27,930 bases of DNA. Source: a virus. Position numbers and translations under genes: made by a program. The notes beneath the pieces were generated by a model. That model ran no database searches and had not been told where the DNA came from. It saw nothing but the letters and a program-made list of their open reading frames with translations. The DNA lies in the IMG/VR virus record IMGVR_UViG_3300032046_000171, positions 1 through 27,930 of that record. One strand, 5' to 3'. Below are positions 3,553 through 27,432 of the stretch, piece by piece (the first letter of the stretch is position 1; the number at the start of each line of letters is the position of its first letter).

Positions 3553-3725
3553 CTTGGCCGCAGCGCGCAGTCGCGGTCTCTTTCCTCTCTGCCGCGATCC
3601 TGGCCGGGTTGTCCGAATCTGGATCGTACGTGGTGCAGGCTCTCTGTGTGGCTTCGGCGGTTGTCTGCATAGTGCTTTGCGCGTTGTGTTTGTGGAGGTG
3701 TTCAGAGGATGAAAGGAGGTCCTGA
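3549..3725 (+). CDS. Small membrane protein
   Basis: A protein of 58 residues starting MTWPQRAVAVSFLSAA. The ATG overlaps the previous stop (ATGA). Two hydrophobic segments cover about residues 6-20 and 28-48 (YVVQALCVASAVVCIVLCAL), with an unusual number of cysteines (CVAS, VVCIVLCALCLWRC) and a charged C-terminus (EDERRS). It forms a pair with the preceding small membrane protein. No function can be assigned. Confidence 0.65.
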   Translation: MTWPQRAVAVSFLSAAILAGLSESGSYVVQALCVASAVVCIVLCALCLWRCSEDERRS

Positions 3726-3964
3726 TGGTGCCCGGGAACCTAGCGGCGAACGTGACTGTCAAGCCGAAGATCGAGATCAACCTCGACCTGTCGAGAATAA
3801 GCCCGAGACTGGTCCAGCTCGCGATGGAGGAAGTGCTTCCGTGCCTGCTGCGGGCGGCACCGACGAAAATCAACATCCTGTTTCCAGAGAAGAACCCCTA
3901 TGTGGAATGGACGGTGCCGCAGGAGAACAGGTTCCTTTTCAACGTGACCTTGTCCCTAGAGTAG
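3725..3964 (+). CDS. Hypothetical protein
   Basis: A protein of 79 residues starting MVPGNLAANVTVKPKI, preceded by a near-perfect GAAAGGAGGTCCTG site. Alternating hydrophobic and charged residues (KPKIEINLDLSRI, TKINILFPEKN, FLFNVTLSLE) suggest beta strands around one helix (RLVQLAMEEVLPCLL). No family is recognised. A competing frame from 3709 overlaps it completely but looks noncoding in this stretch. Confidence 0.7.
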   Translation: MVPGNLAANVTVKPKIEINLDLSRISPRLVQLAMEEVLPCLLRAAPTKINILFPEKNPYVEWTVPQENRFLFNVTLSLE

Positions 3965-3990
3965 CGCGCCCGCCACGGCCCCCCGCCGAA

Positions 3991-4740
3991 GTGTTCAAGC
4001 AGGCCGCTCCCGCCGGCACGATCCTTCTCGGCTACCGAGGCAGTGTCGCGCATGGAACCTACGCCCCGCTCTACGGCCCAGGGATCCGCGACGACGTCGA
4101 CCTCATGGGCGTCATGCTCGGCCCCCTCGGGTCCTACTTCGGCCTCCAGAACTTCGAGCAGATAGAGTTCATGTACGAGGAACCTCTCGGTCGCGTCTGG
4201 GACTGCATCACCTACGAGCTCCGGAAGTACGTTCGCCTCCTGCTTGGAGGGAACCCAAACGTCCTCTCCCTGCTTTGGCTCGATTGCGACAAGTACCTCC
4301 TGATGTCTCGTGCCGGGGAACGCCTGATTGACAACCGCCGGCTGTTCGTCGGCGCCCAACAAGTCCGCAAGGCCTTCGTCGGCTACGCCTACGGGCAACT
4401 CAAGAGGATGAGCCATTTGGCCCCCGATGCTGGCGCTGGGCGCAGGGCCCTGTTCCATCAGTTCGGGTACGACACGAAGAACGCCTCTCACCTCATCCGC
4501 CTGCTCCGTATGGGCGTCGAGTACCTCGAGACTGGGATCCTGACCGTGGAGCGTCCCGATGCGGACGAACTCCTTGCCATCAAGAAGGGGGAATGGTCGC
4601 TATCTCGAGTGGAGCAGGCCGCAGATGATCTGTTCGGCCGCATTGATGCGGCTACGGGTTCCTCCCCCCTGCCAGAGGAGCCAGACCGTATAGCCGCGGA
4701 GCGGATTCTGATGGACATCTTCGAGGAAGAGCTGCTTTGA
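3991..4740 (+). CDS. RlaP-type nucleotidyltransferase (DNA polymerase beta superfamily)
   Basis: A predicted nucleotidyltransferase of about 249 residues. From a GTG at 3991 it reads MFKQAAPAGTILLGYRGSVA, and GYRGSVAHGTYAP plus DDVDLMGV form the nucleotidyltransferase signature: the Gly-Ser motif around residues 17-18 and metal-binding aspartates at 35 and 37. The segment LLLGGNPNVLSLLWLD is typical of the phage and bacterial RlaP/YcgL-like family, members of which occur in RNA-repair contexts. The frame is open back to 3709, but that part overlaps the previous gene and looks noncoding; an ATG at 3907 is the alternative start. No good ribosome binding site is visible, so the start is uncertain. 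Substrate unknown. Confidence 0.8.
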   Translation: MFKQAAPAGTILLGYRGSVAHGTYAPLYGPGIRDDVDLMGVMLGPLGSYFGLQNFEQIEFMYEEPLGRVWDCITYELRKYVRLLLGGNPNVLSLLWLDCDKYLLMSRAGERLIDNRRLFVGAQQVRKAFVGYAYGQLKRMSHLAPDAGAGRRALFHQFGYDTKNASHLIRLLRMGVEYLETGILTVERPDADELLAIKKGEWSLSRVEQAADDLFGRIDAATGSSPLPEEPDRIAAERILMDIFEEELL

Positions 4741-4914: not shown

Positions 4915-5346
4915 ATGTTGCGCAGAACCTTCGAGACACTGTGGCCGCGAGGCGATGCCGTAGCCGAGGCGCGTGTAGTTGATGTCGAACAACAACTTGG
5001 CGCGGCAGGATGGAGGCTGAACACGAGCAGCCGGGCGTCAGACGTCGGGTGGGTGGCGGGGTATCTTCCGCGAGGCGTCCTCCTCCCTTATTGCAGGGTG
5101 TTGGTGTTTGACGACATCTTCGCCGGGCAGGATGCTCTCCCCGGGGCGCCCCTATCTTCGTGCGCCCACGTCGTCATCTCTAGCGACGCCCTGATCTACA
5201 ACTTCAAGCAGCTCGCTAGATCCGCGCATTGCGAGGCTCGATCTGATGCGGAGGGGATTCTCATACGGGAGATAGCGGAGGACCTCGTGTCAGTTCTCCT
5301 CGCGGGGGCTCTCTCCAGGGGCAAGGGAGGAATCCGAGTTGGGTAA
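4915..5346 (+). CDS. Hypothetical protein, first gene of the glycan operon
   Basis: A protein of about 143 residues from an ATG at 4915 (MLRRTFETLWPRGDAV), preceded by AAGGGTGGTGGTG. An upstream ATG at 4873 (MESQDLYLTSRVVV...) is possible but sits against the terminator and has no ribosome binding site. The C-terminal half (VVISSDALIYNFKQLA, EDLVSVLLAGALSRG) is hydrophobic and could form an alpha/beta fold. No family is recognised. Its stop overlaps the TTG of the next glycosyltransferase by 8 nt, so a role in the same sugar pathway is likely but unproven. Confidence 0.6.
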   Translation: MLRRTFETLWPRGDAVAEARVVDVEQQLGAAGWRLNTSSRASDVGWVAGYLPRGVLLPYCRVLVFDDIFAGQDALPGAPLSSCAHVVISSDALIYNFKQLARSAHCEARSDAEGILIREIAEDLVSVLLAGALSRGKGGIRVG

Positions 5347-6463
5347 GACCATCTTCTACCCTCCGACTGTGTGCTGGTCGAGAGAGTTCCAACGCCCTCA
5401 CCAAATCATGCGCCTCATGGCGCAAAGAGGATGGACTGTCTTCTGGGGTTCTCCGCGGCTGGAAGACAAGGAGCTGACCGAGCTCGAGAGGAACATCTTC
5501 CTTGTCCACGACTGGAGGCGGTGGCTGAAGTCCGTTGACTACCAGGTTGACGTCCTGTACTGGACGCATCCCAGGCAGGCGGAGTTTCCGGACCTCTCTA
5601 GGGTCGCGTGCCATGTGTCCTATTTCGAGTCACTTGATGAGTTTCCGGAATGGGATGCCCATGAGCCCTTAGCCCTATCAATGGCTGATGTGGTGTCTGT
5701 TGTGTCCGACTACCTGATGAGGAAACAGGCCAAGCGACATCCTCGCGTCTTCATGTCTCGAAACGCGGCGGATCCTTCGGCCTTCTCGGGCGGGGGCATC
5801 CAGATTCCAAGCGAGTACAGGAAGCTCGAGCGGCCCATCGCCGGCCTTGTGGGGGTCATCGCCCAGTGGATTGACCTCGAGATCCTCGAGGCGGTCTCCA
5901 AGGTTTGCACCGTCGTCCACGTAGGCACTATCTGGGGAGACACCCCAAAAGGCGAGATCCCCCCGTCTGTCCATCTTCTGGGGTACAAAGGCTACTCTGC
6001 CCTCGCCCCATACTACAAGGGGCTGGATGTGGGCCTTGTCCCGTTCAAGCTCTCTAAGATTGGCGTGGCGTCGTGTCCGATCAAGACCTACGAGTACCTG
6101 GCCGCTGGGCTTCCTGTCGTGTCTACGCCCCTTCCGGAGTCTCTGGTGCTGGCCCCCTTTGTCGTATGTGCCGAGAGGGGTTCCTTCCCCAGAGAGGTAT
6201 TGAAGGCCGCGAAGTCAAAGAACCCCTACGCTGCGCTGAACCGTGCTGCGTTTGCCAGCCAGAACTCCTGGTCCTCTCGAGTTGATGAGATCGAACGGCA
6301 GATCAAGATGGCGTGGGGGCCTCGACGCACGCTGGCCTCGCGGGCCGGCCTTCCGGAACCGCGGGAGCCGAAGACCCCTGTGGGGCGCGCCCCGGAACCG
6401 CCCGGACAACAGCGTGTCGGCCGGCGCGATCCCGCACTGCCGCGGCACAGGAGTCGAACGTGA
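5339..6463 (+). CDS. Glycosyltransferase, GT-B fold (GT4-like)
   Basis: A GT-B glycosyltransferase of 374 residues that would transfer a sugar from a nucleotide donor. The N-terminal domain has the acceptor-side motif FQRPHQIMRLMAQRGW (about 18-33). The C-terminal donor domain includes HLLGYKGYSALAPYYKGLDV, VGLVPFK and the nucleotide-sugar signature KTYEYLAAGLPVVSTPLPE. The TTG start at 5339 is supported by AAGGGAGG 8 nt upstream. The last 40-50 residues are Pro/Arg-rich (EPREPKTPVGRAPEPPGQQ) and probably disordered. The stop overlaps the next GTG by 4 nt. Donor and acceptor are unknown. Confidence 0.85.
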   Translation: MGKTIFYPPTVCWSREFQRPHQIMRLMAQRGWTVFWGSPRLEDKELTELERNIFLVHDWRRWLKSVDYQVDVLYWTHPRQAEFPDLSRVACHVSYFESLDEFPEWDAHEPLALSMADVVSVVSDYLMRKQAKRHPRVFMSRNAADPSAFSGGGIQIPSEYRKLERPIAGLVGVIAQWIDLEILEAVSKVCTVVHVGTIWGDTPKGEIPPSVHLLGYKGYSALAPYYKGLDVGLVPFKLSKIGVASCPIKTYEYLAAGLPVVSTPLPESLVLAPFVVCAERGSFPREVLKAAKSKNPYAALNRAAFASQNSWSSRVDEIERQIKMAWGPRRTLASRAGLPEPREPKTPVGRAPEPPGQQRVGRRDPALPRHRSRT

Positions 6464-7377
6464 AGCTGCAAATCCTCTCTACGGGCAGCGGCCCCTACGG
6501 CGCCATCCACCGCGCCCACATGGCGCCCGTCATTGCCGCCCTGGGGGACAGTGAGATCTTCTGGGACCCCTCTCGTAGAGTCGGCGGGGGGTACAACCAG
6601 CCCCTAAAAGGGTTCCTCACTTTTGCTCTAGGGTGGGAGGAGGGACCGGCTGACGTCTTCATGCCACACGGCATCGCGGACAAGAACCTCCGCAATGCCT
6701 GGAACATTCAGGGGTTCCGCCAGGCTATCGTTTCCGGCCCTGCGTGGGCGAAGAAGCTCGTCTCCCAGCACAGGGCTTGGGACACGATCTTTATCGGCGG
6801 GTACCCGTTCCTCGATCCTGTGTTTGAGAACTGGCCTGTCGCGGCGGGCTCCGTCGTTTGGGCGCCAACGCACTCCAACTCGGCAGTAGACCTCGATGCG
6901 GCCTCCGCCGCGATCCAGGGGGCGATGGCTGGACTTCCTTCTTTGCTGTTGGTCGTCTCTAAGCATCCTTACGACCAGGGAGCGGGCGGAGAGTACGGCA
7001 TGTCTGCCCGGCAAATGGCCGCGGCGAAGGTAGTCATTGCGGACATCGGCTCCACGGCCTACGAGGCAATGGCCCTCGGGAAGCCGGTTGTGTTTCTGGA
7101 CTTCATGCACGCCGATGGGCAACTCAGTTGGTGGCCGGGCTCGTTTGAGGAGCAGATCTACGCCGAGAAGATTGGGCGCCACGTGGGCAGGCCGGAAGAT
7201 CTCGCCCCTGCTCTGGCCGATGCGGTCGAGCTCGGACCTACCCCCCACGAGGTTGAGTTCATCGAGCAGATCTTCCCCGCCGCATTGCGCGGCGTCTCGG
7301 GGAAGGTCGTTGCAGACAGACTACGCCAACTATGGGAAGCGAAGACGGCCTCCCGCTATTGGTGCGGTGCGGGGTGA
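6460..7377 (+). CDS. Glycosyl/glycerophosphotransferase-like protein (GT-B, TagB/TagF-like)
   Basis: A protein of 305 residues starting at GTG 6460 (VKLQILSTGSGPYGAI), with ACAGGAG upstream and a GTGA overlap with the previous gene. An open extension back to 6313 is a shadow inside the previous gene. PHGIADKNLRNAWNI and the later VVIADIGSTAYEAMALGKPVV match the HG...K and D-x-x-S-x-x-x-E pattern of CDP-glycerol glycerophosphotransferases and related GT-B enzymes. VVSKHPYDQ is also typical. The protein is shorter than TagF and may use another donor. It belongs to the coupled glycan operon. Confidence 0.78.
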   Translation: MKLQILSTGSGPYGAIHRAHMAPVIAALGDSEIFWDPSRRVGGGYNQPLKGFLTFALGWEEGPADVFMPHGIADKNLRNAWNIQGFRQAIVSGPAWAKKLVSQHRAWDTIFIGGYPFLDPVFENWPVAAGSVVWAPTHSNSAVDLDAASAAIQGAMAGLPSLLLVVSKHPYDQGAGGEYGMSARQMAAAKVVIADIGSTAYEAMALGKPVVFLDFMHADGQLSWWPGSFEEQIYAEKIGRHVGRPEDLAPALADAVELGPTPHEVEFIEQIFPAALRGVSGKVVADRLRQLWEAKTASRYWCGAG

Positions 7378-8159
7378 TGATGAAAACTGATCTGGTCATT
7401 GCCGCGGCGCGCGATGCCCGCTCTCTGGCCCTGTGCGCGAGGGGCGTCGCCTGGTCTAACCTCTCGCAGGTCGACCGAGTGGTCGTTCTCGTCAACAACG
7501 CAGACGGCACAAACGCCACGATGGACGTGCGACGAAGCGCCGTCGTGCTGAGTCTCGAGCACGGCTGGGATGTTATCGAGTACGCGGGTGATGGTGCCTG
7601 CGGGGACGCCTTGGCGTGGTATGTGCGGGGGGCGCCGGCGCAGGGCTTCGTGAAGATCGACTCGGATATGTTCCCCATTCACAGAGGATGGGTTGGCGGC
7701 CTCTTACGCGAACTGCGTAACGCAGAACTGGTAAGCGGCATGACCAATGCCAACTGGCATTGCTCTGGCGAGTTCATGCGCGCGCTGGACCGCGATCCAT
7801 CCCCTCTCCTGTACAAGGATGCTGCGCGCAACATGGAGATCTGGCTTGAAACGCTCTCTCAATGGCAGAAGGTGACAGAAAAGGGTACTTTCCGCGATTT
7901 CTATGTCGAGACCCCGGAGTGGATCTCCGGCAATGCTTTCGCGTTCAGTCGAGGCTGGTTCGACTCGATCCCGCCTGAAGCCTGGGCGGGGAAGATGGAC
8001 GAGGCGGTCATCAACCTGCCGGCAGGCCGACGCGCGCCCGTTCCCGTGATCGGGGAGTCCCTTCTCTTGCACTGGGGGTATGGGCCCGCGACGAGGCAAC
8101 TGGAACCGATGTGGAATGACGCTTCAGAAAGACTGCTCAAACTGTGGGGTGAAACGTGA
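7377..8159 (+). CDS. Glycosyltransferase with DxD motif (GT-A, GT2-like)
   Basis: A protein of 260 residues starting MMKTDLVIAAARDARS. The ATG at 7377 overlaps the previous stop (TGATGATG), and a second ATG follows directly. The N-terminal strand-helix pattern with VVVLVNNAD, then DALAWY and VKIDSDMFPIHRGW (metal-binding DSD, about residues 93-95), is the layout of an inverting GT-A transferase. Later NAFAFSRGWF and HWGYGPATR would form the acceptor side. Exact family and sugar are not clear. It overlaps the following GTG by 4 nt. Confidence 0.75.
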   Translation: MMKTDLVIAAARDARSLALCARGVAWSNLSQVDRVVVLVNNADGTNATMDVRRSAVVLSLEHGWDVIEYAGDGACGDALAWYVRGAPAQGFVKIDSDMFPIHRGWVGGLLRELRNAELVSGMTNANWHCSGEFMRALDRDPSPLLYKDAARNMEIWLETLSQWQKVTEKGTFRDFYVETPEWISGNAFAFSRGWFDSIPPEAWAGKMDEAVINLPAGRRAPVPVIGESLLLHWGYGPATRQLEPMWNDASERLLKLWGET

Positions 8160-9247
8160 GACAACTGACCGCGGTGATTATCCCCGCGAGGGGAGACGGC
8201 GAAAGGATCCGCGCACTGAGGGCAGACGGGAACAAACTCCTGCTCCCGTGGGGCAAAGGATATGTAGTCGACGCCTTGCTGGATACGTTCAGCGCAACGC
8301 CGGACGAGATCGTGATTGTCACTTTGCCGCAGCACCTTGATGAGCTGGCAAAGGTCGTTGGGGACAGAGCGTCTATTGTTTCTCATCCTCGTGAAGAACG
8401 TGACTCGCCCGTTCTCTCCTTGGCTGTCGGGCTCGAGCGCCTGTCTGCCCTCCCGGGCAACGCGAGCGTCGCGGTCCTCTTCTCAGACACGATCCTTGCG
8501 AGAGCGGTTCCGCTGACATCACAACAGCCGGAGGCCGACGTCGCCTTCGTCAAGGACGGCTTTCGTTATCAGGTGTGGCGCGGCATGGACTATCTAGCAG
8601 GGGCGCAACGGTGGTCCTACCCGCTCGGTGAGCATAAGCCAGCCTTGGCGGCAATCGGAATCTACCGGGCACCTCTTACTCACTGGTCGAAGATCGTATT
8701 GCCAGATAAGTGTACTGGTCTAGGCGACATGGACTGGTGGGCGTTCTACCCCAGGGAGGTTCCAGTCGACTCGTGGCATGACGCGGGAACGGTCGAGTCT
8801 TACTCGGAGTCTTGCCGCCGCAGCGGGCATGTGGAGTGGGAAACGGGTCGTCAGATGCAGCGGCGCTTTCGGCGTTGGGCGGCAGATCGCTATCTGCCGT
8901 GGGCAACAACCTTGAGGGAGGTCGCTTCCTACGATGCGGTGAGGGCCACAAAGATCGGGGGGGTCGAACTGTTCCCGCTCGGGGGTTCCGGCATGATGGA
9001 GGCAATGGAAGGGAACAAGAGAACGTGGACCCCCATCCGCAGCGCAAGGCTCCGCTTCAGCGAGATCGGCATGGAGAACGAAGACTCTCTGGATGTCTCC
9101 ATCCGTTCGGTTATGCTTGACCCTGGCGGCAAGCGGATCGGGGAGGTCTCCGATGTTCGTTTTGTACCCGTCCGTCGAGGGGAGACTCTGTACCGGGCGC
9201 GAAGCGGGGAGAAGGTCTATGCGGTACAGCGCAAGGAGGCTGAGTGA
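8156..9247 (+). CDS. Sugar nucleotidyltransferase-like protein with C-terminal extension
   Basis: A protein of 363 residues, GTG start at 8156. The first part has the NTP-transferase signature AVIIPARGDGERIRAL and NKLLLPWGK, the region VAVLFSDT, and DSWHDAGTVESYSE, which resembles the W-D-x-G-T motif of NDP-sugar pyrophosphorylases. It would activate a sugar phosphate to an NDP-sugar. Residues from about 220 to the end form a further, unrecognised domain (GGVELFPLGGSGMMEA, TWTPIRSARLRFSEIG). The gene is linked by GTGA overlaps to both neighbours, which fits supply of a donor to the transferases upstream. Confidence 0.75.
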   Translation: MRQLTAVIIPARGDGERIRALRADGNKLLLPWGKGYVVDALLDTFSATPDEIVIVTLPQHLDELAKVVGDRASIVSHPREERDSPVLSLAVGLERLSALPGNASVAVLFSDTILARAVPLTSQQPEADVAFVKDGFRYQVWRGMDYLAGAQRWSYPLGEHKPALAAIGIYRAPLTHWSKIVLPDKCTGLGDMDWWAFYPREVPVDSWHDAGTVESYSESCRRSGHVEWETGRQMQRRFRRWAADRYLPWATTLREVASYDAVRATKIGGVELFPLGGSGMMEAMEGNKRTWTPIRSARLRFSEIGMENEDSLDVSIRSVMLDPGGKRIGEVSDVRFVPVRRGETLYRARSGEKVYAVQRKEAE

Positions 9248-10347
9248 GAGCGTTGCTCATAGCGGGAACCAGGCCGGAGATCGTCAAGCTCTACCCCGTG
9301 TACCTGGAGTTGATCGCCCGGGGGCACTCCTGCGAACTTGGTTGGTCTGGGCAACAGGCGGACCTGGGGCCGCAGACACTGAACGTCTTCGGGTGGAGGC
9401 CGCGGTTCGCGAACAACCGCCCGGACAGAACAGCCGCCAACCGCCTGGTTGATGTCACCTCGGGCGTCCTCGAGTGGGCCACCGCCGCCATCAGGGGGTA
9501 CGGGCCGGACGTCGTAATCGTTCAGGGGGACACTACGACGACGCTCGCCGGGGCTCTCGCCGCGTTCTACTCGAAAGCACAGTGTGCCCATGTCGAAGCT
9601 GGTTTACGCACACATAACCGATGGTCACCCTATCCGGAAGAGATGAACCGGGCCCTCGTCGACCGGCTCTGCGACATCCTGATTCCTCCTACGGAGGAGG
9701 CGAGATCAAGGCTCGAGCAGGAGGGGCTCCTCCCGTCAGCGCCTGCTGGGAACACGGAGCTCGACGCGGTGCGGATCATCCTCCAGCGCCGGGCCCTCCG
9801 CGAGGTCGGGGAAGGGCCCGTGCTTATCACGGTGCATCGCCGGGAGAACGCCGGGCGCGGAGCGGAGGAGGTTGCCAGGGCGGTTGACCTCCTAGCGGAA
9901 GCATCCCCCGAGAGGCGGTTTCTGGCGGTGCGCCACCCCAATGCGGGCCATAATGCGGGCCATTGTGGCCCGTTCGACGCCTTGAATCGGGACAACCTGA
10001 AGGTCGTCCCCCCCATGCCGTTTGACGCCTTCGTGGCCGTCCTTTATCACTCCCCGCTGGTCATCACCGACTCGGGGGGGATCCAGGAGTCGGCGGCGTA
10101 CCTTCACGTCCCGCTTATCGTCTGCCGAGAGTCCACGGAGCGTCCAGAGGGGGTCCAGGCGGGTTGCGCCTGGTTGGTGCCGCCAGAGTCCGGGGCTCTG
10201 GCCAGAGCCGCCCTGAGCCTGCTTCGAGAAGACTCCCCAGAACGCGCCGCCATGAAGGCGGCTTCTTGCCCCTATGGGGACGGATACGCCGCAGTTGGGG
10301 TAGTTAGCATCTTAGAAAGAGAGGTTCGTGTCCCCGTAGCGCGCTAA
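9244..10347 (+). CDS. wecB: UDP-N-acetylglucosamine 2-epimerase (WecB family)
   Basis: A protein of 367 residues that would interconvert UDP-GlcNAc and UDP-ManNAc in the cytoplasm. Family motifs appear in order: GTRPEIVKLYP (8-18), VQGDTTTTLA (93-102), HVEAGLRT (116-123), PEEMNR (131-136), GNTELDAV (about 169-176), HRREN (208-212) and TDSGGIQESA followed by RESTERPEG. All catalytic regions are present and the length is normal. The GTG at 9244 overlaps the previous stop. A tandem 12-bp duplication (9940-9951 and 9952-9963) adds a second Asn-Ala-Gly-His near the substrate loop. It is the last gene of the glycan operon, directly before a terminator. Confidence 0.92.
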   Translation: MRALLIAGTRPEIVKLYPVYLELIARGHSCELGWSGQQADLGPQTLNVFGWRPRFANNRPDRTAANRLVDVTSGVLEWATAAIRGYGPDVVIVQGDTTTTLAGALAAFYSKAQCAHVEAGLRTHNRWSPYPEEMNRALVDRLCDILIPPTEEARSRLEQEGLLPSAPAGNTELDAVRIILQRRALREVGEGPVLITVHRRENAGRGAEEVARAVDLLAEASPERRFLAVRHPNAGHNAGHCGPFDALNRDNLKVVPPMPFDAFVAVLYHSPLVITDSGGIQESAAYLHVPLIVCRESTERPEGVQAGCAWLVPPESGALARAALSLLREDSPERAAMKAASCPYGDGYAAVGVVSILEREVRVPVAR

Positions 10348-10358
10348 CCGGCAAACGA

Positions 10359-10398
10359 GAAGGCCCCCCGAAATGAGGAACGGGGAGCCTTCTTGTTG
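10359..10398 (+). terminator. Intrinsic terminator of the glycan operon
   Basis: A 12-position stem (GAAGGCCCCCCG / CGGGGAGCCTTC) with a single mismatch closes a 10-nt loop and is followed by TTGTTGTAT. It lies 12 nt after the epimerase stop. The stem is strong and the tail moderately U-rich. Confidence 0.8.
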
Positions 10399-10424
10399 TA
10401 TCTGGCGGAGTTTTGCAGTAGAAT
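10396..10424 (+). promoter_or_regulatory. Sigma70-like promoter
   Basis: TTGTAT (10396-10401), a 17-nt spacer and TAGAAT (10419-10424) fit a host sigma70 promoter well. It starts in the terminator tail and points at the ubiquitin-like gene, whose ATG is at 10470 behind a GGAGGGG site. This promoter differs from the TTGCCG-N19-TACATT class, suggesting separate control of this two-gene unit. Confidence 0.6.
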
Positions 10425-10469
10425 CAGTTCAGCCGCCAGGCAGGTCTCTCAGGGCGGCTGGAGGGGACC

Positions 10470-10691
10470 ATGGTGAACGTGCGCGCGGTGTTGCCAACGC
10501 CCAGGGGGCACGCAGTTCGGACCGACGTCACCCCGCAGCGGGTAATCAACGCCTTTCGGCACTTCGGCTACGCGCCGCCCAAGATGTTCATCAGAGATGA
10601 CGAAGAAAGGATGCGGAGAGTGTCAGATCCTAAAGCGCTTGATGAGGGACAGACCGTCTACTTTGTCTTCCCTCTTGCAGGCGGCTGCTGA
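10470..10691 (+). CDS. Ubiquitin-like / ThiS-MoaD-like beta-grasp protein ending in Gly-Gly-Cys
   Basis: A protein of 73 residues starting MVNVRAVLPTPRGHAV, with GGAGGGGACC before the ATG. The pattern is two strands, a helix (PQRVINAFRHFGYA), strands (KMFIRDDEERMRRV), then ALDEGQTVYFVFPLAGGC. The final block matches the L-x-D/E-G-D/Q-x-V...-AGG end of MoaD/ThiS sulfur carriers and ubiquitin-like modifiers, with Gly-Gly at 71-72 and one extra residue, Cys73. In such families the Gly-Gly end is adenylated and either thiolated or conjugated. No E1-like enzyme or JAB peptidase is seen in the window. The fold is inferred from pattern alone. Confidence 0.6.
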   Translation: MVNVRAVLPTPRGHAVRTDVTPQRVINAFRHFGYAPPKMFIRDDEERMRRVSDPKALDEGQTVYFVFPLAGGC

Positions 10692-11187
10692 CCAAAGAGT
10701 CTACGCGGTCGAGGTGCTTGGGGAAGACAGGGTGTCCTTCTTCGAGCGCGAGGGGTTCTTGGCTGTTCAGGGCTCTAACGGTCGTGTCTACTACGTGTTC
10801 GACCGTGTCGCGGAGAAGTACCTTCTCTCCCAGCGGGCGCCACACCGCAATACCAGCAAGTGCCCTCCCGAGATTCGCTTTGTCGATCGCTATCCATACT
10901 GGTTTGAGGAGAGCTCGGATTGGGTCATCTGGGGCTGGGACAAGGATCTAGCGGAGCGCAAGGTTCTCGAGGAACACTTCTGGATGCTCCACTCGTTCAA
11001 CCTGCCGCGTCTCGACGAACTCGTTGGCCTCGTGCTCGAGATCGAAGACGACGTGGATGACGTTCTGTCTCGCGCGTGCGATCCGCTGGCGCGCCCCCCG
11101 CACTACTCGGAGGCGACAGAAGCCATGCTGGCCCGCATTGGGGCTGCGCTGGACTATGACGCTTACTCTGTCCTGGACTCCCTGTAG
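10675..11187 (+). CDS. Unknown protein coupled to the ubiquitin-like gene
   Basis: From a TTG at 10675 the product is about 170 residues. The frame is open from 10597, with ATGs at 10597 and 10642, but none of these starts has a good ribosome binding site and the upstream part overlaps the Gly-Gly protein gene. The body has a strand-rich N-terminus (YAVEVLGEDRVSFFE, VQGSNGRVYYVFDR), a Trp/Tyr-rich centre (YPYWFEESSDWVIWGWDKD) and an acidic C-terminal helix region (VLEIEDDVDDVLSR). No family is recognised. Its 3' end overlaps the convergent sigma-like gene by about 190 nt. Its position suggests a partner or target of the ubiquitin-like protein. Confidence 0.6.
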   Translation: MQAAADQRVYAVEVLGEDRVSFFEREGFLAVQGSNGRVYYVFDRVAEKYLLSQRAPHRNTSKCPPEIRFVDRYPYWFEESSDWVIWGWDKDLAERKVLEEHFWMLHSFNLPRLDELVGLVLEIEDDVDDVLSRACDPLARPPHYSEATEAMLARIGAALDYDAYSVLDSL

Positions 11188-11887
11188 GACAGATCGCATC
11201 ACGCAGCCCCTCCAGTTCTTCCGTCGAGCAGCATTCCTTCAGGTAGGCGATCGCGAGCAGCCAGGCCTCTTCTCGTTCCACGCGCTCGCGGTCCGAAGTT
11301 GCCCCTACGTAAGCGCGAATCGCTCGAGCGTGGTCCCCCGGAAGCCCGTCCACGATCTCCCAGAGCCTCTCCCGGGCCACTGTGCCCTCTACGCTGTTTC
11401 CGCCTTCGTCTAGGGGCCGGCCGGCGGGCGCGTCCTCGTCGTACTTCTCCTGGAGGATCCCGTGAAGGTGACGGGCCTTTTGGGACTGGAGAGAGCGGAC
11501 CTCTGTTGCGACTGCGTGCCCCATCAGAAGGTTTGCCCACGATGAGAATCGAACAGTCTTCCCCTCCAGCTCTTTGCAGGGGCGGGAAGGGTCAAAGGTC
11601 TTGATCGCCCTCCATAGCGCCACAGACATCACGCACGCGGCCTCGTCCAGAGAGATCTCCCATGAACAAGGCTTGCGTGCATTTTCTCGTTGGGGGCGCG
11701 CCCCGCCGTAAGGGGCGGAGAGTTTCCGGGCGAACTTCATCATGCGTCGCGCGTTGTGGCAGTAGAGCTTGGCGACGGCATCCTCATCTCCCGCGGCTGC
11801 TTTGGCGGCCAGGTAGGCCTCCTCCCCTGGCGACAGAAGGGGATACCTCGTACAGAGGCCCTCAAGGCCGGCAAACACTGATTTCAT
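10997..11887 (-). CDS. Divergent sigma factor-like protein (sigma70 family)
   Basis: A leftward protein of 296 residues starting MKSVFAGLEGLCTRYP; AAGGAG lies 9 nt before the ATG at 11887. LLSPGEEAYLAAKAAAGDED and AVAKLYCHNARRMMKFARKL match sigma regions 1.2 and 2.1. ISLDEAACVMSVALWRAIKT, FDPSR and VRFSSWANLLMGHAV match regions 2.2-2.4, including the FDP and F-S-[ST]-[WY]-A hallmarks. LWEIVDGLPGDHARAIRAY resembles the start of region 4, but the helix-turn-helix is weak. The last 65 residues are low-complexity Pro/Arg/Ser and overlap the convergent gene. A one-base indel near 11200 would end the protein at 11199 instead. It would direct RNA polymerase to phage promoters. Confidence 0.72.
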   Translation of the reverse strand: MKSVFAGLEGLCTRYPLLSPGEEAYLAAKAAAGDEDAVAKLYCHNARRMMKFARKLSAPYGGARPQRENARKPCSWEISLDEAACVMSVALWRAIKTFDPSRPCKELEGKTVRFSSWANLLMGHAVATEVRSLQSQKARHLHGILQEKYDEDAPAGRPLDEGGNSVEGTVARERLWEIVDGLPGDHARAIRAYVGATSDRERVEREEAWLLAIAYLKECCSTEELEGLRDAICPTGSPGQSKRHSPAQPQCGPAWLLSPPSSAGGAPADRTRETERHPRRLRSRARGQRVRRDAAG

Positions 11888-12611: not shown

Positions 12612-13469
12612 ATGAAGAAAGCTCTTCGCGCCGTAACGCTACTCGTCCTGATGGCGGTCCTCGCCGTCTCGCTGGCGGGTTGCTTTGAGAAGCCTGCCGT
12701 CATCACCGTCTCCCCGGTCAGGTTCGGGGGCTACCCCAGTGCCACCGCGGGCGGCCTCAAGGTGACCTTCACGGTCGCCGGAGTGGTCGGAGATGTGTAT
12801 GTAGACTTCGGGGACGGATCCGATTTCGTCATGCTCCCGTCAAGCCGCACAATTAGTCATGTCTTCTGCTACGAAGGCGCGTATGCTGTGACGTTCACCA
12901 CCGGCAAAGCGCTAGGCAGATCGACTGTGTATGTCCTTAACAACAGGCCAATCGTCTACGTTCCATTCTGGGTTGAGGGGCCCGTGGTCGGCGCAGGCGA
13001 GTTCCTGATGTTTGATCTCAGGTACATGGAACGAGGTTGTGCGGGCGGGGGTGCGCCCCTGCGGGCATACGGGGTCGCCCCCGGGCAGGACCAGAACTAC
13101 ATCCGCATCTCGGCGGTAAATGCTCTCGGAAGCAGGATCTCGATCTTCAACGCCGATCGTGTCCTGGTGAACGACATCTGGATTCCCCTGCCGCAGTTCC
13201 TCGGGTGTTTCGCTCAGTGGTCGGGGGACACCCCGCGGTTCCCGTTCATCTTCCCGGTGCTCTCTGCGTTGGATACGACAACGCTCGGCTGTGAACCCGT
13301 GTGTCCACCGCCTGATGACCCGTGGATTCCGGAAAATCCTGGCCCCAACGACATCGAGATGCGATTCATTCTCGAGGCGCGCAACCAGTGGATGCCGGAA
13401 GGTCTCGACTCCTACCCACGACGAGAGTGGGCCATCTACGCCCCGCTCCACAACTGCACCCTTCCCTAG
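12612..13469 (+). CDS. Predicted lipoprotein with PKD-like domain
   Basis: A protein of 285 residues starting MKKALRAVTLLVLMAV. Residues 1-23 form a lipoprotein signal peptide with lipobox L-A-G-C and the lipidated Cys at 24, so the product should be exported and membrane anchored. VYVDFGDGSDFVMLP, HVFCYEGAYAVTF is the D-F-G-D-G...H-x-Y/F-x-x-x-G-x-Y-x-V pattern of PKD-type beta-sandwich domains. The C-terminal half has several Cys and Pro (CEPVCPPPDDPWIPE). AGGAG precedes the ATG by 9 nt. A role in changing the host surface, such as superinfection exclusion, is an inference. Confidence 0.78.
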   Translation: MKKALRAVTLLVLMAVLAVSLAGCFEKPAVITVSPVRFGGYPSATAGGLKVTFTVAGVVGDVYVDFGDGSDFVMLPSSRTISHVFCYEGAYAVTFTTGKALGRSTVYVLNNRPIVYVPFWVEGPVVGAGEFLMFDLRYMERGCAGGGAPLRAYGVAPGQDQNYIRISAVNALGSRISIFNADRVLVNDIWIPLPQFLGCFAQWSGDTPRFPFIFPVLSALDTTTLGCEPVCPPPDDPWIPENPGPNDIEMRFILEARNQWMPEGLDSYPRREWAIYAPLHNCTLP

Positions 13470-13485: not shown

Positions 13486-13734
13486 ATGCTGAATGTCTTT
13501 ACTTGGATCATCGAAAAGGCCACGTCCATACTCAAGACCGGCGCCAGCGCCGTCCTTCCCGCCACGCAGATTGAGGCTGTCGGGGGCAGGCGCGTATGGC
13601 TCTGTCTGGTGGGCATGGTGTTCGTCGTCGCCGGCCACTACATCGGCATCCCGGAGTCCCTGCAGTACGCCTGTTTGGGATTGGCGGGGGCATTCGTTGT
13701 TGGGCAGTCGGCGGTCGACTACAAGCGGGAATGA
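13486..13734 (+). CDS. Small membrane protein, possible holin-like
   Basis: A protein of 82 residues starting MLNVFTWIIEKATSIL, with AGAGGAGGAAG before the ATG. There is an amphipathic N-terminus and two hydrophobic segments, about 36-51 (VWLCLVGMVFVVAGHY) and 59-73 (LQYACLGLAGAFVVG), then a charged tail (SAVDYKRE). This shape is like class II holins, but no lysis enzyme can be identified next to it with confidence, so the holin label is tentative. It overlaps the next gene by ATGA. Confidence 0.65.
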   Translation: MLNVFTWIIEKATSILKTGASAVLPATQIEAVGGRRVWLCLVGMVFVVAGHYIGIPESLQYACLGLAGAFVVGQSAVDYKRE

Positions 13735-14150
13735 AGAAGCGGCGGATCACCCACCTTGTCGTTGGGCTGGAGACCTATCCCGTCGTCTTCGCGCCCGAGC
13801 ATCTCGCCGCCATCGAGCGGCACGACAAAACGAGTGGGGCGCTAAAGACCTCGGCTGGATACGACGGGCTCGTCTCGTTCAAGTTCGGTGTCGTCCTGCT
13901 GAATCCCAACATCAGGGTGACAGAGAACAAACCTCTCCTGGTGTTGGGGCACGAGGCGCTCCACCTCGTCGAGTACGCCGCGGCGACCCCCCTTGGAGAG
14001 GAGCCGGTGGACAGGATCTCGCGCGCCTTCCTCACCATGCTTGTCGAATCCGGCATCATAAATCCAGACGAGATCGAGATTGTGGGGATCTCTCCGGAGG
14101 AAGCCGGTCTTCCATCTCCGGAGGAATGTGTGGAGATCCTAGGGGTATGA
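13731..14150 (+). CDS. HExxH zincin-like protein
   Basis: A protein of 139 residues starting MKKRRITHLVVGLETY, coupled to the preceding gene by a 4-nt overlap. The key feature is LLVLGHEALHLVEY (about residues 71-84), an HExxH metallopeptidase motif on a predicted helix, preceded by the strand-like VVLLNPNIRV. A third zinc ligand is not obvious; a glutamate in the EEP/DRIS segment or later could serve. This suggests a small metalloprotease of unknown target. ImmA/IrrE-like or lysis-related roles are possible but not shown. Confidence 0.68.
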   Translation: MKKRRITHLVVGLETYPVVFAPEHLAAIERHDKTSGALKTSAGYDGLVSFKFGVVLLNPNIRVTENKPLLVLGHEALHLVEYAAATPLGEEPVDRISRAFLTMLVESGIINPDEIEIVGISPEEAGLPSPEECVEILGV

Positions 14151-14909: not shown

Positions 14910-16298
14910 ATGCCGGTCCTCAAACTCCATAGCTCATTCTTCGGCGAGCACCCCAAGCAGGACAAGCTGCTGACCTGCGAGGAGCGCTGGCAGGTCGTCG
15001 CCGCGGGACGGCGCTTCGGGAAGGGCAACTTCGCTCTACGCAAAGCCGCCAAGATCGGGGCCCTGCATCCTGGATGCCGCATCTGGATCGTTTCGCCCAC
15101 GTACTCCTTCACCGATCCCATGTGGGATAAGGCTGTGGCGGCGTTTAGCCAGATGAGGGTCGGCGCATCCTCCTTCGTCCAAAAGACGCGCATCAAAGAC
15201 CGAGACATCGTCTTGTTCAACGGCGCGGAGATCCAGTTCAAGACCTCGGTCGAACCTGACAGCTTACGCGGGGCCGGCGACTTGATGGAGTTCTTGATCG
15301 TCGACGAAGCCGCCTACTGCGAGGAAGAGGCCTGGAAAGCGGTCCGCCCGGCGCTGATGGACCACAAGGCGCCAGCCGTGTTCATCTCGACCCCCAACCG
15401 GCTCAACCCCAAAAACTGGTTCTACGATCTGTGGCTGAAGGGGCAGACGCACTTGAGCGTTGTCTGCCCGGGTTGCGGGGGCGGGGGGCAGTGCTCCCTG
15501 TGCTGCGACAGCGGGTCGGTCCTCATCGAGAACCCCGCGAAGACCGAGGGGTACGCCTCGTGGCAGTTCTCCAGCTACGACAATCCGTACATCGACCCGG
15601 CGGAGATCGACGACCTCATTGCCACATCCAACTGGAACAGCCAGGACGTCCGCCGAGAGATCTTCGCCGAGTTTCTTGGAGGCACCGCGGTCATCTTCCC
15701 CTATGAGGCGGTCCGAGACTGCATCAAAGGGCAATTCGAGGCGTACACGCCAGGCTGCATGTACGTGATCGGAGTTGACCTGGGCCGCGTGGAATCGCAT
15801 ACCGTGGTTACGGTATTGCGTTTTCCGGCGTCCGATCAAGAGGTCCCCCACGTAGTGCGCATCGAGCGCTTTCAGGGATCGTGGGGCGTGCAGAAACAGC
15901 GCATCGCGGACATCGCCAAGCACTACGCGAGCCCTCCCGCTTTCATCGACGCCACAGGCCTTGGCGACCCCCTGCGCCACGAACTAGAGTTGGAACCGTA
16001 CAACGTCCGCAAGTTGAACCCAGTCAAGTTCAGCGGGACCAGCAAGCCGCAGATCGTAGACGCTCTAGTTGGAGCGGTGAACGGAAGCTCCATCTCCTTC
16101 CCGGAGCACGCACAACTCGAGAAGGAGCTCGTCGGCCTGGAGGCCAAGACGACTCCCGGAGGAACGACTACCTACCAGCGCTCAAAGGGCGTCCCTGACG
16201 ACTGCGTCATGTCTCTTTGTCTTGCCTACTGGGGGTTCCTGACTTTGGGAGGAGGGACGAAAAGAGGAGGTCTCTGGATCCGGGGGATTGGGAGATGA
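14910..16298 (+). CDS. terL: Terminase large subunit with a zinc-ribbon insertion
   Basis: A DNA-packaging motor and nuclease of 462 residues. The ATPase domain has Walker A GRRFGKG (33-39), Walker B LMEFLIVDEAAY (125-136) and the coupling motif FISTPN (158-163). The C-terminal RNase H-like nuclease has IGVDLGRVESHT (Asp290), FIDATGLGD (Asp347) and VPDDCVMSLCLAYWG (Asp431). Between the domains lies CPGCGGGGQCSLCC (Cys 186, 189, 195, 198/199), a small zinc-ribbon-like insert that most terminases lack. The ATG follows the previous stop without a gap. No small terminase subunit is recognised nearby; the helical protein at 11922 is only a candidate by position. Confidence 0.93.
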   Translation: MPVLKLHSSFFGEHPKQDKLLTCEERWQVVAAGRRFGKGNFALRKAAKIGALHPGCRIWIVSPTYSFTDPMWDKAVAAFSQMRVGASSFVQKTRIKDRDIVLFNGAEIQFKTSVEPDSLRGAGDLMEFLIVDEAAYCEEEAWKAVRPALMDHKAPAVFISTPNRLNPKNWFYDLWLKGQTHLSVVCPGCGGGGQCSLCCDSGSVLIENPAKTEGYASWQFSSYDNPYIDPAEIDDLIATSNWNSQDVRREIFAEFLGGTAVIFPYEAVRDCIKGQFEAYTPGCMYVIGVDLGRVESHTVVTVLRFPASDQEVPHVVRIERFQGSWGVQKQRIADIAKHYASPPAFIDATGLGDPLRHELELEPYNVRKLNPVKFSGTSKPQIVDALVGAVNGSSISFPEHAQLEKELVGLEAKTTPGGTTTYQRSKGVPDDCVMSLCLAYWGFLTLGGGTKRGGLWIRGIGR

Positions 16299-23233: not shown

Positions 23234-23407
23234 ATGCACACGGTGAAAAACCCCAAGAGGGAGTTGCGGGTCATCAACCTGCCTACGAGGACCCTCTACC
23301 TGGCAGCCAGGGAGATAGTGGACCTCACGGACGAAGAGTACACCTGCCGGGACGTGCGCGCCCTGTTCAGGGTTGGTCTCCTGAGAGATGTCGGAGGTGA
23401 CCGCTAG
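23234..23407 (+). CDS. Small conserved-looking tail-region protein
   Basis: A protein of 57 residues starting MHTVKNPKRELRVINL, with a clean AAGGAGACAAGCA site. It reads on through LPTRTLYLAAREIVDLTDEE to a GGDR end. Its stop shares a base with the GTG of the sheath gene (TAGTG). Small proteins in this place between tail terminator and sheath are common in contractile-tailed phages, function unknown. Confidence 0.7.
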   Translation: MHTVKNPKRELRVINLPTRTLYLAAREIVDLTDEEYTCRDVRALFRVGLLRDVGGDR

Positions 23408-26015: not shown

Positions 26016-26804
26016 ATGGCCAAGTCATTCACCTTGCCTGTAGGCCTTCTCGAGGAAGGCGTTCTTCGGACGCAGGTCGAGATCAATATCCCTACCGCGC
26101 GCACCCTGAAGCGCGTGCGTGATGCCCTTCTTGGCGAGAAGGGGCGCCTCAACCCCGAGGTCTACATGGTCGCCTTGCGCGAGAGCGTGGCTTCCCTGGA
26201 GGGAGGTCCGGTGACCGACGCGCGGCTCCATGCGTTGGCCTGGGTTGACGCGGAGTTCATCTACTACCAGGCGGCCCGCCTCGAGTTTGACGAGCCGGAT
26301 CCGGAGATCCCGATCGTCTGCTCGTCCTGCGATCGCTTCATCAAGGTCCGTTTCCCATTTAACAGTGTACGCATCGTCGACCTGTCTGACCCGGAGTGCA
26401 AGTCGGCGTTCGCCAACTCGACGCGCACCATCTCGTTTGCGCTCGGTGAGCCGATCACTACGCTCGATCTCGCCAAGACGCCCGTGAGCGCTGGGTCTAT
26501 CGGCCTGCTCACCGTCAAACAGCAACTCGACCTCCAGCGCAAGGGGACCAAGATCGGCACGGCAATGCTCGAGTCGATCTTCGGGGCGATCGCGGAGTTG
26601 GGCGGGCGCCCGCGCGGGTCGTTCGCCCTAGCGGACATCGAGGGGATGCTCTCCTCGGACATCAAGAAGATCGAGCGCACGTACAACGCGAACATCCCGG
26701 GCGTCTTCCCGCCGACCGACATCACCTGCCCGTCATGCGAGAAGCCTCTCTCGTTCACTACGATCGACTGGGTGACCGACTTCTTGGCGGGGCATCGGGC
26801 GTAG
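26016..26804 (+). CDS. Tail assembly chaperone with two CxxC pairs
   Basis: A protein of 262 residues starting MAKSFTLPVGLLEEGV, with AAAGGAG before the ATG. It lies between the tube and tape measure genes, the place of tail assembly chaperones. IVCSSCDRFIKVRF (about 100-113) and ITCPSCEKPLSFTT (about 237-250) supply two CxxC pairs that can form one zinc site, a feature seen in T4-type baseplate/tail chaperones. A second frame overlaps its 3' end and reads on for about 70 codons, the usual layout of the chaperone frameshift pair. Confidence 0.75.
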   Translation: MAKSFTLPVGLLEEGVLRTQVEINIPTARTLKRVRDALLGEKGRLNPEVYMVALRESVASLEGGPVTDARLHALAWVDAEFIYYQAARLEFDEPDPEIPIVCSSCDRFIKVRFPFNSVRIVDLSDPECKSAFANSTRTISFALGEPITTLDLAKTPVSAGSIGLLTVKQQLDLQRKGTKIGTAMLESIFGAIAELGGRPRGSFALADIEGMLSSDIKKIERTYNANIPGVFPPTDITCPSCEKPLSFTTIDWVTDFLAGHRA

Positions 26805-26839: not shown

Positions 26840-27022
26840 GTGCCCTTCTATGGGACGCCTGTTTTGGAGACCGAAGATCACATCCTCTGTACAACCTACC
26901 ACGGATGGACCATTGACGACTGCGACAACCTCCCCCTGCCCGTGCGACGGATGCACATGAAGATGATCCAGGCGGATCGCGAGCGCGAGGCGGCGATGGC
27001 CGAGGAGCTAAAGCACAAGTAA
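26840..27022 (+). CDS. Second tail chaperone reading frame (possible frameshift extension)
   Basis: From a GTG at 26840 this gives about 60 residues (VPFYGTPVLETEDHIL ... LPLPVRRMHMKMIQADRERE). The same frame is open upstream through 26735-26839 in the -1 frame relative to the chaperone gene, so it may be made only as a frameshifted extension. No canonical X-XXY-YYZ slippery site was found in the overlap; the nearest is GCG-GGG near 26788. A GGAGGG about 22 nt before the GTG is too far for good initiation. Helical and charged at the C-terminus. Confidence 0.6.
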   Translation: MPFYGTPVLETEDHILCTTYHGWTIDDCDNLPLPVRRMHMKMIQADREREAAMAEELKHK

Positions 27023-27432
27023 TGCGTGTTACCCGGCACTACCTCACAGAAGGCCCGATGTCGTTCCTAGACATCACCGGGGGTGTCGCAGCGGAACTCT
27101 TGGAGTCCGGGGTCGACTGCGGCATCGCCGTCATCTCGTCCCGGCACACCACCGCGGCGATCCTCGTCCAAGAGAACGAGCGGGGGCTCCTCCGAGACCT
27201 CGCCGCCGTTCTCGAGCGCACAGTCCCCCAGACTGCTCAGTACAGCCACAATGACCTCCAAGGGGAACTCCCCAACGGACACGCCCACTGTCGGGCTATC
27301 TTTCTGCCAACGAGCGTAGTCCTGCCAGTTTCCTTCGGCCAACTCGTCCTCGGCCGCTGGCAAAGCATCCTCCTCGTCGAGCTCGACACCTCCCGCCCCC
27401 GCGACATCGACATCACCATCATCCCAGCGTAG
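27022..27432 (+). CDS. YjbQ/UPF0047 family protein
   Basis: A protein of 136 residues starting MRVTRHYLTEGPMSFL, ATG overlapping the preceding stop (TAATG). It matches the YjbQ/UPF0047 family along its whole length: ISSRHTTAAILVQENERGLL (39-58), YSHNDLQGELPNGHAH (74-89), LPTSVVLPV (95-103) and LGRWQSILLVELD (110-122). The His, Asn and Gly-His-x-His residues of the active-site pocket are present. Cellular YjbQ proteins have thiamine phosphate synthase activity in some assays and are otherwise poorly understood. Finding it between tail chaperones and tape measure is unusual; it may be a metabolic cargo gene or a reused tail component. Confidence 0.85.
   Translation: MRVTRHYLTEGPMSFLDITGGVAAELLESGVDCGIAVISSRHTTAAILVQENERGLLRDLAAVLERTVPQTAQYSHNDLQGELPNGHAHCRAIFLPTSVVLPVSFGQLVLGRWQSILLVELDTSRPRDIDITIIPA

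What the first reader, a model, noticed from the sequence alone, without database searches (positions are those of the whole stretch)
10470..11187. Ubiquitin-like protein ending Gly-Gly-Cys with its own promoter and an unknown partner
The 73-aa product fits a beta-grasp fold and ends AGGC. Ubiquitin-like and ThiS/MoaD carriers act through a C-terminal Gly-Gly; one residue beyond it suggests that a peptidase exposes it or that the Cys takes part itself. The gene forms an isolated unit with a tightly coupled unknown gene, between a terminator and a convergent sigma gene. This could be a phage protein-modification or sulfur-carrier system.
Basis: partly seen in the sequence, partly recalled or inferred. 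Interest (0 to 1): 0.75.

Follow-up and report, generated by a model that had tools for sequence, protein, structure and literature searches.

The report
Phage ubiquitin-like protein ending Gly-Gly-Cys
A contractile-tailed phage carries a tiny gene for a protein that probably folds like ubiquitin and ends Gly-Gly-Cys; the only related phage found keeps that exact ending at the same place in its genome although the rest of the protein has changed beyond recognition, so the ending is probably the working part, but no matching ubiquitin-type enzymes were seen.

Summary
A 73-codon ORF (10470-10691), with a strong ribosome site and its own promoter-like site, ends LAGGC* and overlaps a second ORF (to 11187) that runs towards a sigma-like gene. 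AlphaFold2 on the single sequence gives beta-beta-alpha-beta-beta-beta (pLDDT 72). The best PDB matches are ubiquitin-like/beta-grasp proteins, including the sulfur carrier TtuB. The last 22 residues align in register with MoaD, with the Cys one residue past Gly-Gly.

One relative was found, another phage contig (L001; terminase 52%, sheath 57% identical). It has the same block: small gene, partner (35%), convergent sigma gene (33%). Its 64-aa small protein shares no detectable sequence with the window protein except the tail, VYxxxxLxGGC*. So the Gly-Gly-Cys end is kept where the body is not. That body is not predicted as beta-grasp (pLDDT 56).

No E1 (ThiF) or JAB gene was found in any of the five (incomplete) phage records. 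The partner matches no family and shows no E1 GxGxxG motif by eye. Carrier, decoy or conjugation function is therefore inference. I judge this a new orphan variant of phage ubiquitin-like proteins whose tail is functional; mechanism open.

The parts
10347..10400 (+). G+C-rich hairpin after the UDP-GlcNAc 2-epimerase gene, terminator-like, isolates the unit
   Evidence: RNA fold -28.0 kcal/mol; the scanner lists only short stems here, on the other strand
10396..10424 (+). promoter-like site TTGTAT-17-TAGAAT
   Evidence: 8 of 12 to consensus; inference; the syntenic site in L001 (656-684) scores 10 of 12
10460..10466 (+). Shine-Dalgarno-like GGAGGGG, 3 bases before ATG
   Evidence: sequence
10470..10691 (+). 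73-aa ubiquitin-like (beta-grasp) protein ending LAGGC
10656..10688 (+). conserved tail VYFVFPLAGGC (L001: VYILRRLIGGC)
10675..11187 (+). partner ORF, overlapping the end of the ubiquitin-like ORF; orphan family with one relative (L001, 35%); start uncertain (TTG 10675; ATG 10642 or 10597 possible)
10997..11887 (-). convergent sigma-like ORF, overlaps the partner's 3' end; syntenic in L001 (33% identity)
   Evidence: Pfam Sigma70_r1_2 E 1.1e-4

Best explanation
A small, independently transcribed phage gene makes a ubiquitin-like (beta-grasp) protein whose flexible tail, LxGGC, is its functional part. Shown by computation: the beta-grasp prediction; the tail in register with the MoaD end plus one Cys; conservation of the tail and of the gene pair with the sigma gene in a second phage. 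Inferred: the tail enters the active site of an enzyme that handles ubiquitin-like proteins, most likely one of the host, or is handled by the co-translated partner. As made, the terminal Cys blocks the diglycine, so the protein is either (a) an inactive precursor that a peptidase trims to Gly-Gly for use as a carrier or modifier, or (b) used with its Cys on. I think (a) somewhat likelier than (b), because one-residue caps on Gly-Gly, including Cys, are known on ubiquitin precursors. The partner probably binds or handles the small protein, since the two are co-encoded in both phages.
For: Single-sequence AF2: pLDDT 72, order E3-7 E14-17 H22-31 E38-42 E48-51 E62-66, tail 71-73 under pLDDT 50. 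Foldseek PDB: the leading matches are ubiquitin and UBL domains (best E 2e-3, TM about 0.48). VIA-align: the listed rows are nearly all ubiquitin-like, PB1 or Ras-binding beta-grasp domains, best Z 5.9, TtuB Z 5.2. Profile alignment of residues 51-72 in register with the MoaD C-terminus, score 20.7 against a maximum of 19.4 in 100 body shuffles that kept the tail. In L001 the gene at the same place ends RRLIGGC. The similarity lies in the tail: z 4.2 with it, 0.1 without the last 8 residues. In the window the GGC codons overlap the partner frame, but in L001 the aligned partner residues lie about 45 bases downstream, so a shared overlap does not force the ending. Human UBB ends in a Cys after Gly76 that USP5 and UCHL3 remove (PMC4522658).
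Against: The L001 counterpart is predicted as helix plus four strands at low confidence, not beta-grasp, and gives no MoaD/ThiS profile match. There is no ThiF or JAB in any record, although all are fragments. Z below 6 and Foldseek E above 1e-3 are weak. Only one relative exists, so the conservation rests on two sequences.
Confidence: 0.4

Rival explanations
1. Decoy/inhibitor: the ubiquitin-like protein docks on a host E1-like enzyme (of a ubiquitin-like defence system or of sulfur metabolism), and the terminal Cys, which keeps Gly-Gly from being activated, traps the enzyme by a disulphide or by dead-end binding.
For: Bacteroides fragilis ubiquitin ends in Cys, forms a disulphide-dependent complex with human E1 and inhibits ubiquitination in vitro (PMC3352274). 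Bacteria use ubiquitin-like conjugation against phages (PMC10097602, title and abstract). No conjugation genes were seen in the phage fragments. A rapidly diverging body with a fixed tail is expected under conflict.
Against: No host is known and no interaction data exist. BfUbb lacks the terminal Gly-Gly, so the parallel is partial. Tail conservation also fits use as a carrier.
Confidence: 0.2
2. Tail as ligand of the partner: the small protein is a structural or regulatory subunit (for instance of a toxin-antitoxin-like, anti-sigma or transcription-control pair next to the sigma gene) that contacts the partner through VYxxxxLxGGC; no carrier chemistry.
For: Pair and sigma gene are kept together in both phages. 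The tail is kept while the fold seems to differ. No ubiquitin-pathway enzymes.
Against: Does not explain why the tail of the window protein is in register with the MoaD/ThiS diglycine end.
Confidence: 0.25
3. Chance ending: two unrelated small proteins in the same place happen to end Gly-Gly-Cys; the beta-grasp domain has an unrelated binding role.
For: Apart from the tail the two small proteins have no detectable similarity. Only two sequences are known.
Against: Gly-Gly-Cys ends occur in about 6 in 10,000 ORFs, and V-Y and L at fixed distances from the end also match (local alignment: 16 of 5000 shuffles reach it).
Confidence: 0.1

Closest known systems
MoaD/ThiS/TtuB sulfur carriers (Pfam ThiS, PF02597)
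   Same: size, predicted beta-grasp fold, beta5 followed by xxGG in register
   Different: not matched by the Pfam model; one extra Cys after Gly-Gly; no ThiF/MoeB or sulfur-pathway gene nearby
Ubiquitin precursors with a one-residue cap (human UBB, Gly76-Cys)
   Same: beta-grasp and Gly-Gly-Cys end; cap removed by USP5 or UCHL3 (PMC4522658)
   Different: no significant sequence match; single domain in a phage; no peptidase identified
Bacteroides fragilis ubiquitin BfUbb
   Same: prokaryotic ubiquitin-like protein ending in Cys, without its own E1/E2 (PMC3352274)
   Different: BfUbb is close to eukaryotic ubiquitin, has a signal peptide and lacks the terminal Gly-Gly
[quoted passage not shown]
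   Same: phage-encoded ubiquitin-like domain with conserved C-terminal glycine (PMC1779556)
   Different: TAPI lies in the tail operon beside a JAB/NlpC protein and has an extra C-terminal domain; this gene is in a separate unit by a sigma gene

Membership tests
Ubiquitin-like beta-grasp fold | beta-beta-alpha-beta-beta(-beta) topology | tested here: met
   AF2 single sequence, pLDDT 72, order E-E-H-E-E-E; leading PDB matches ubiquitin-like or related. By prediction only. For the L001 counterpart the prediction was not beta-grasp, at pLDDT 56
MoaD/ThiS carrier family (PF02597) | match to the curated family model | tested here: not met
   no Pfam match up to E 10
MoaD/ThiS carrier family (PF02597) | C-terminal Gly-Gly free at the end of the translated protein | tested here: not met
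   ends Gly-Gly-Cys in both phages; the Gly-Gly itself is in register
MoaD/ThiS carrier family (PF02597) | cognate E1-like ThiF/MoeB enzyme | tested here: inconclusive
   none in the five phage fragments; genomes incomplete, host unknown
Bacterial ubiquitin-like conjugation operons (E1/E2/JAB) | ubiquitin-like gene beside E1, E2 and JAB genes | tested here: not met
   neighbours are an orphan ORF and a sigma-like gene; JAB and ThiF absent
Phage TAPI | located in the tail operon with a JAB/NlpC TAPK protein | tested here: not met
   separate unit about 12 kb from the sheath gene; no JAB
Ubiquitin-like carrier by function | C-terminal adenylation, thiocarboxylate or conjugate | not testable with these tools
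   needs biochemistry

The most novel reading that the evidence does not exclude
A phage-specific two-gene ubiquitin-like system in which the protein works through an intact Gly-Gly-Cys tail, with the Cys as a reactive group, together with a partner that is not E1, E2 or JAB, for example to disable host ubiquitin-like defence enzymes or to modify proteins by new chemistry.
Probability: 0.15. Interest if true: 0.85.

Novelty: new variant of a known kind. Interest (0 to 1): 0.5.

Why it matters
Stand-alone ubiquitin-like proteins outside tail operons appear little described in phages; my paper searches were limited. A tail that is kept exactly while the body diverges is a sharp, testable lead to either a phage carrier/modifier with a built-in Cys cap or a counter-defence decoy against bacterial ubiquitin-like immunity. 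Both would be new phage strategies.

Tried and rejected
Close relatives by peptide patterns of the small protein and of the partner in IMG/VR: none beyond L001. tblastn of both proteins in 50,697 phages, and of the partner in 72,556 plasmids: nothing credible. DNA pattern for VYxxxxLxGGC* in IMG/VR: only L001 lies at the end of a plausible gene. A related pattern in 85k genomes: 11 chance hits. Partner motif pattern in IMG/VR and genomes: only L001, the rest chance. Partner profile in about 1,200 genomes of three phyla: no match, though without a positive control in those sets. I thought I recalled a widespread family resembling the partner; no search supported it, so I dropped it. A shared ribosomal frameshift joining the two ORFs was rejected: the partner lies in a different frame relative to the small gene in L001 than in the window. 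Relatives of the gene after the sheath (L045, L046, L048) lack the pair in their available sequence.

Full report
What is there. The window is a fragment of a phage with a contractile tail: terminase at 14910 and sheath at 23407, T4-baseplate-like protein at 26016 (weak). Between a surface-sugar gene cassette that ends with a UDP-GlcNAc 2-epimerase gene (9244-10347) and a convergent sigma-like ORF (11887-10997) sits a two-gene unit. The first gene (10470-10691) has a clear Shine-Dalgarno sequence and codes for 73 residues ending LAGGC. Upstream are a strong hairpin and a weak promoter-like site. The second ORF overlaps its end; the exact start of the second is uncertain.

Fold. AlphaFold2 on the single sequence gave mean pLDDT 72 with the order strand-strand-helix-strand-strand-strand and a low-confidence tail. 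Foldseek against the PDB gave ubiquitin and UBL domains as the leading matches, best E 2e-3. VIA-align gave ubiquitin-like and related beta-grasp domains nearly throughout, Z up to 5.9, including the sulfur carrier TtuB at 5.2. These scores are modest, but their consistency supports the fold. The last 22 residues align in register with the end of MoaD proteins; the score of 20.7 exceeded all 100 shuffles of the body that kept the tail, maximum 19.4.

The relative. One phage contig, L001 (IMGVR_UViG_3300033141_001438), shares terminase (52%), sheath (57%) and the next tail gene (63%). It has the same block: promoter-like site, small gene (64 aa), partner (35% identical), convergent sigma gene (33%). 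In L001 a GTG in the partner frame overlaps the TAG stop of the small gene, so the two genes look coupled there as in the window. The small proteins share the tail VYxxxxLxGGC and nothing else detectable: alignment z-score 4.2 with the last 8 residues, 0.1 without. Gly-Gly-Cys ends are rare among ORFs, about 6 in 10,000 after removing copies of these loci. In the window the GGC codons overlap the partner frame, while in L001 the aligned partner residues begin about 45 bases later, so a shared overlap does not force the ending. The tail therefore looks selected.

The complication. The L001 protein is modelled as one helix and four strands at pLDDT 56, without the first beta hairpin. Either it is a strongly diverged member that single-sequence prediction cannot handle, or the tail has been kept on a different body. 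The second reading would point to the tail as a recognised peptide rather than to ubiquitin-like chemistry.

The machinery. The ThiF and JAB models found nothing in the window or in four related phage records, while the built-in controls rang. All records are fragments, so this is not proof of absence. The partner has no match in Pfam, PHROGs or NCBIfam, nor in the PDB by sequence. By eye it has no GxGxxG nucleotide motif, and no His is among its invariant columns with L001, so it is not an obvious E1 or JAB. A Cys near its end (RxCxP) is conserved, which could be catalytic, but this is only a pointer.

Interpretation. I favour a ubiquitin-like protein whose tail is handled by an enzyme of the host or by the partner, most simply as a Cys-capped precursor. 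The known parallel is human UBB, whose extra Cys is trimmed (PMC4522658). The main functional rival is a decoy: a Cys-ended ubiquitin of B. fragilis forms a disulphide-dependent complex with human E1 and inhibits ubiquitination (PMC3352274), and bacteria use ubiquitin-like conjugation in phage defence (PMC10097602, title and abstract). The other rival is a simple partner-binding tail without carrier chemistry.

Novelty. Phage ubiquitin-like domains are known as TAPI in tail operons (PMC1779556). This gene lies outside the tail operon, has a Gly-Gly-Cys end, and has an orphan partner, so I call it a new variant of a known kind.

Noticed in passing
window 13596-14150 (real start probably later, near 13731) and L001 3085-3444: Small protein with an HExxH motif (GHEALHLVEY; L001 FHETFHTIEH), conserved in both phages at 28% identity, no Pfam match; a zincin-like peptidase 2.4 kb from the ubiquitin-like gene. 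It could in principle trim the tail, but such genes are common in phages (own knowledge).
   Followed up: partly
window 5339-10347: Cassette of sugar and cell-surface genes (glycosyltransferases, NTP transferase, UDP-GlcNAc 2-epimerase) in the phage; not seen beside the pair in L001.
   Followed up: partly
window 27022-27432: UPF0047/YjbQ family protein encoded in the tail gene region.
   Followed up: no
window 3709-4740: RlaP-like nucleotidyltransferase (RNA repair family), PHROG 388.
   Followed up: no
window 12612-13469: Putative lipoprotein with a PKD domain encoded by the phage.
   Followed up: no
L001 324-659: CxxCxxCC metal-chelating-domain protein directly upstream of the Gly-Gly-Cys gene in the related phage; not at that place in the window.
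   Followed up: no
window 10997-11187: 3' ends of the partner and of the sigma-like ORF overlap on opposite strands by about 190 bases; in L001 by about 50.
   Followed up: partly
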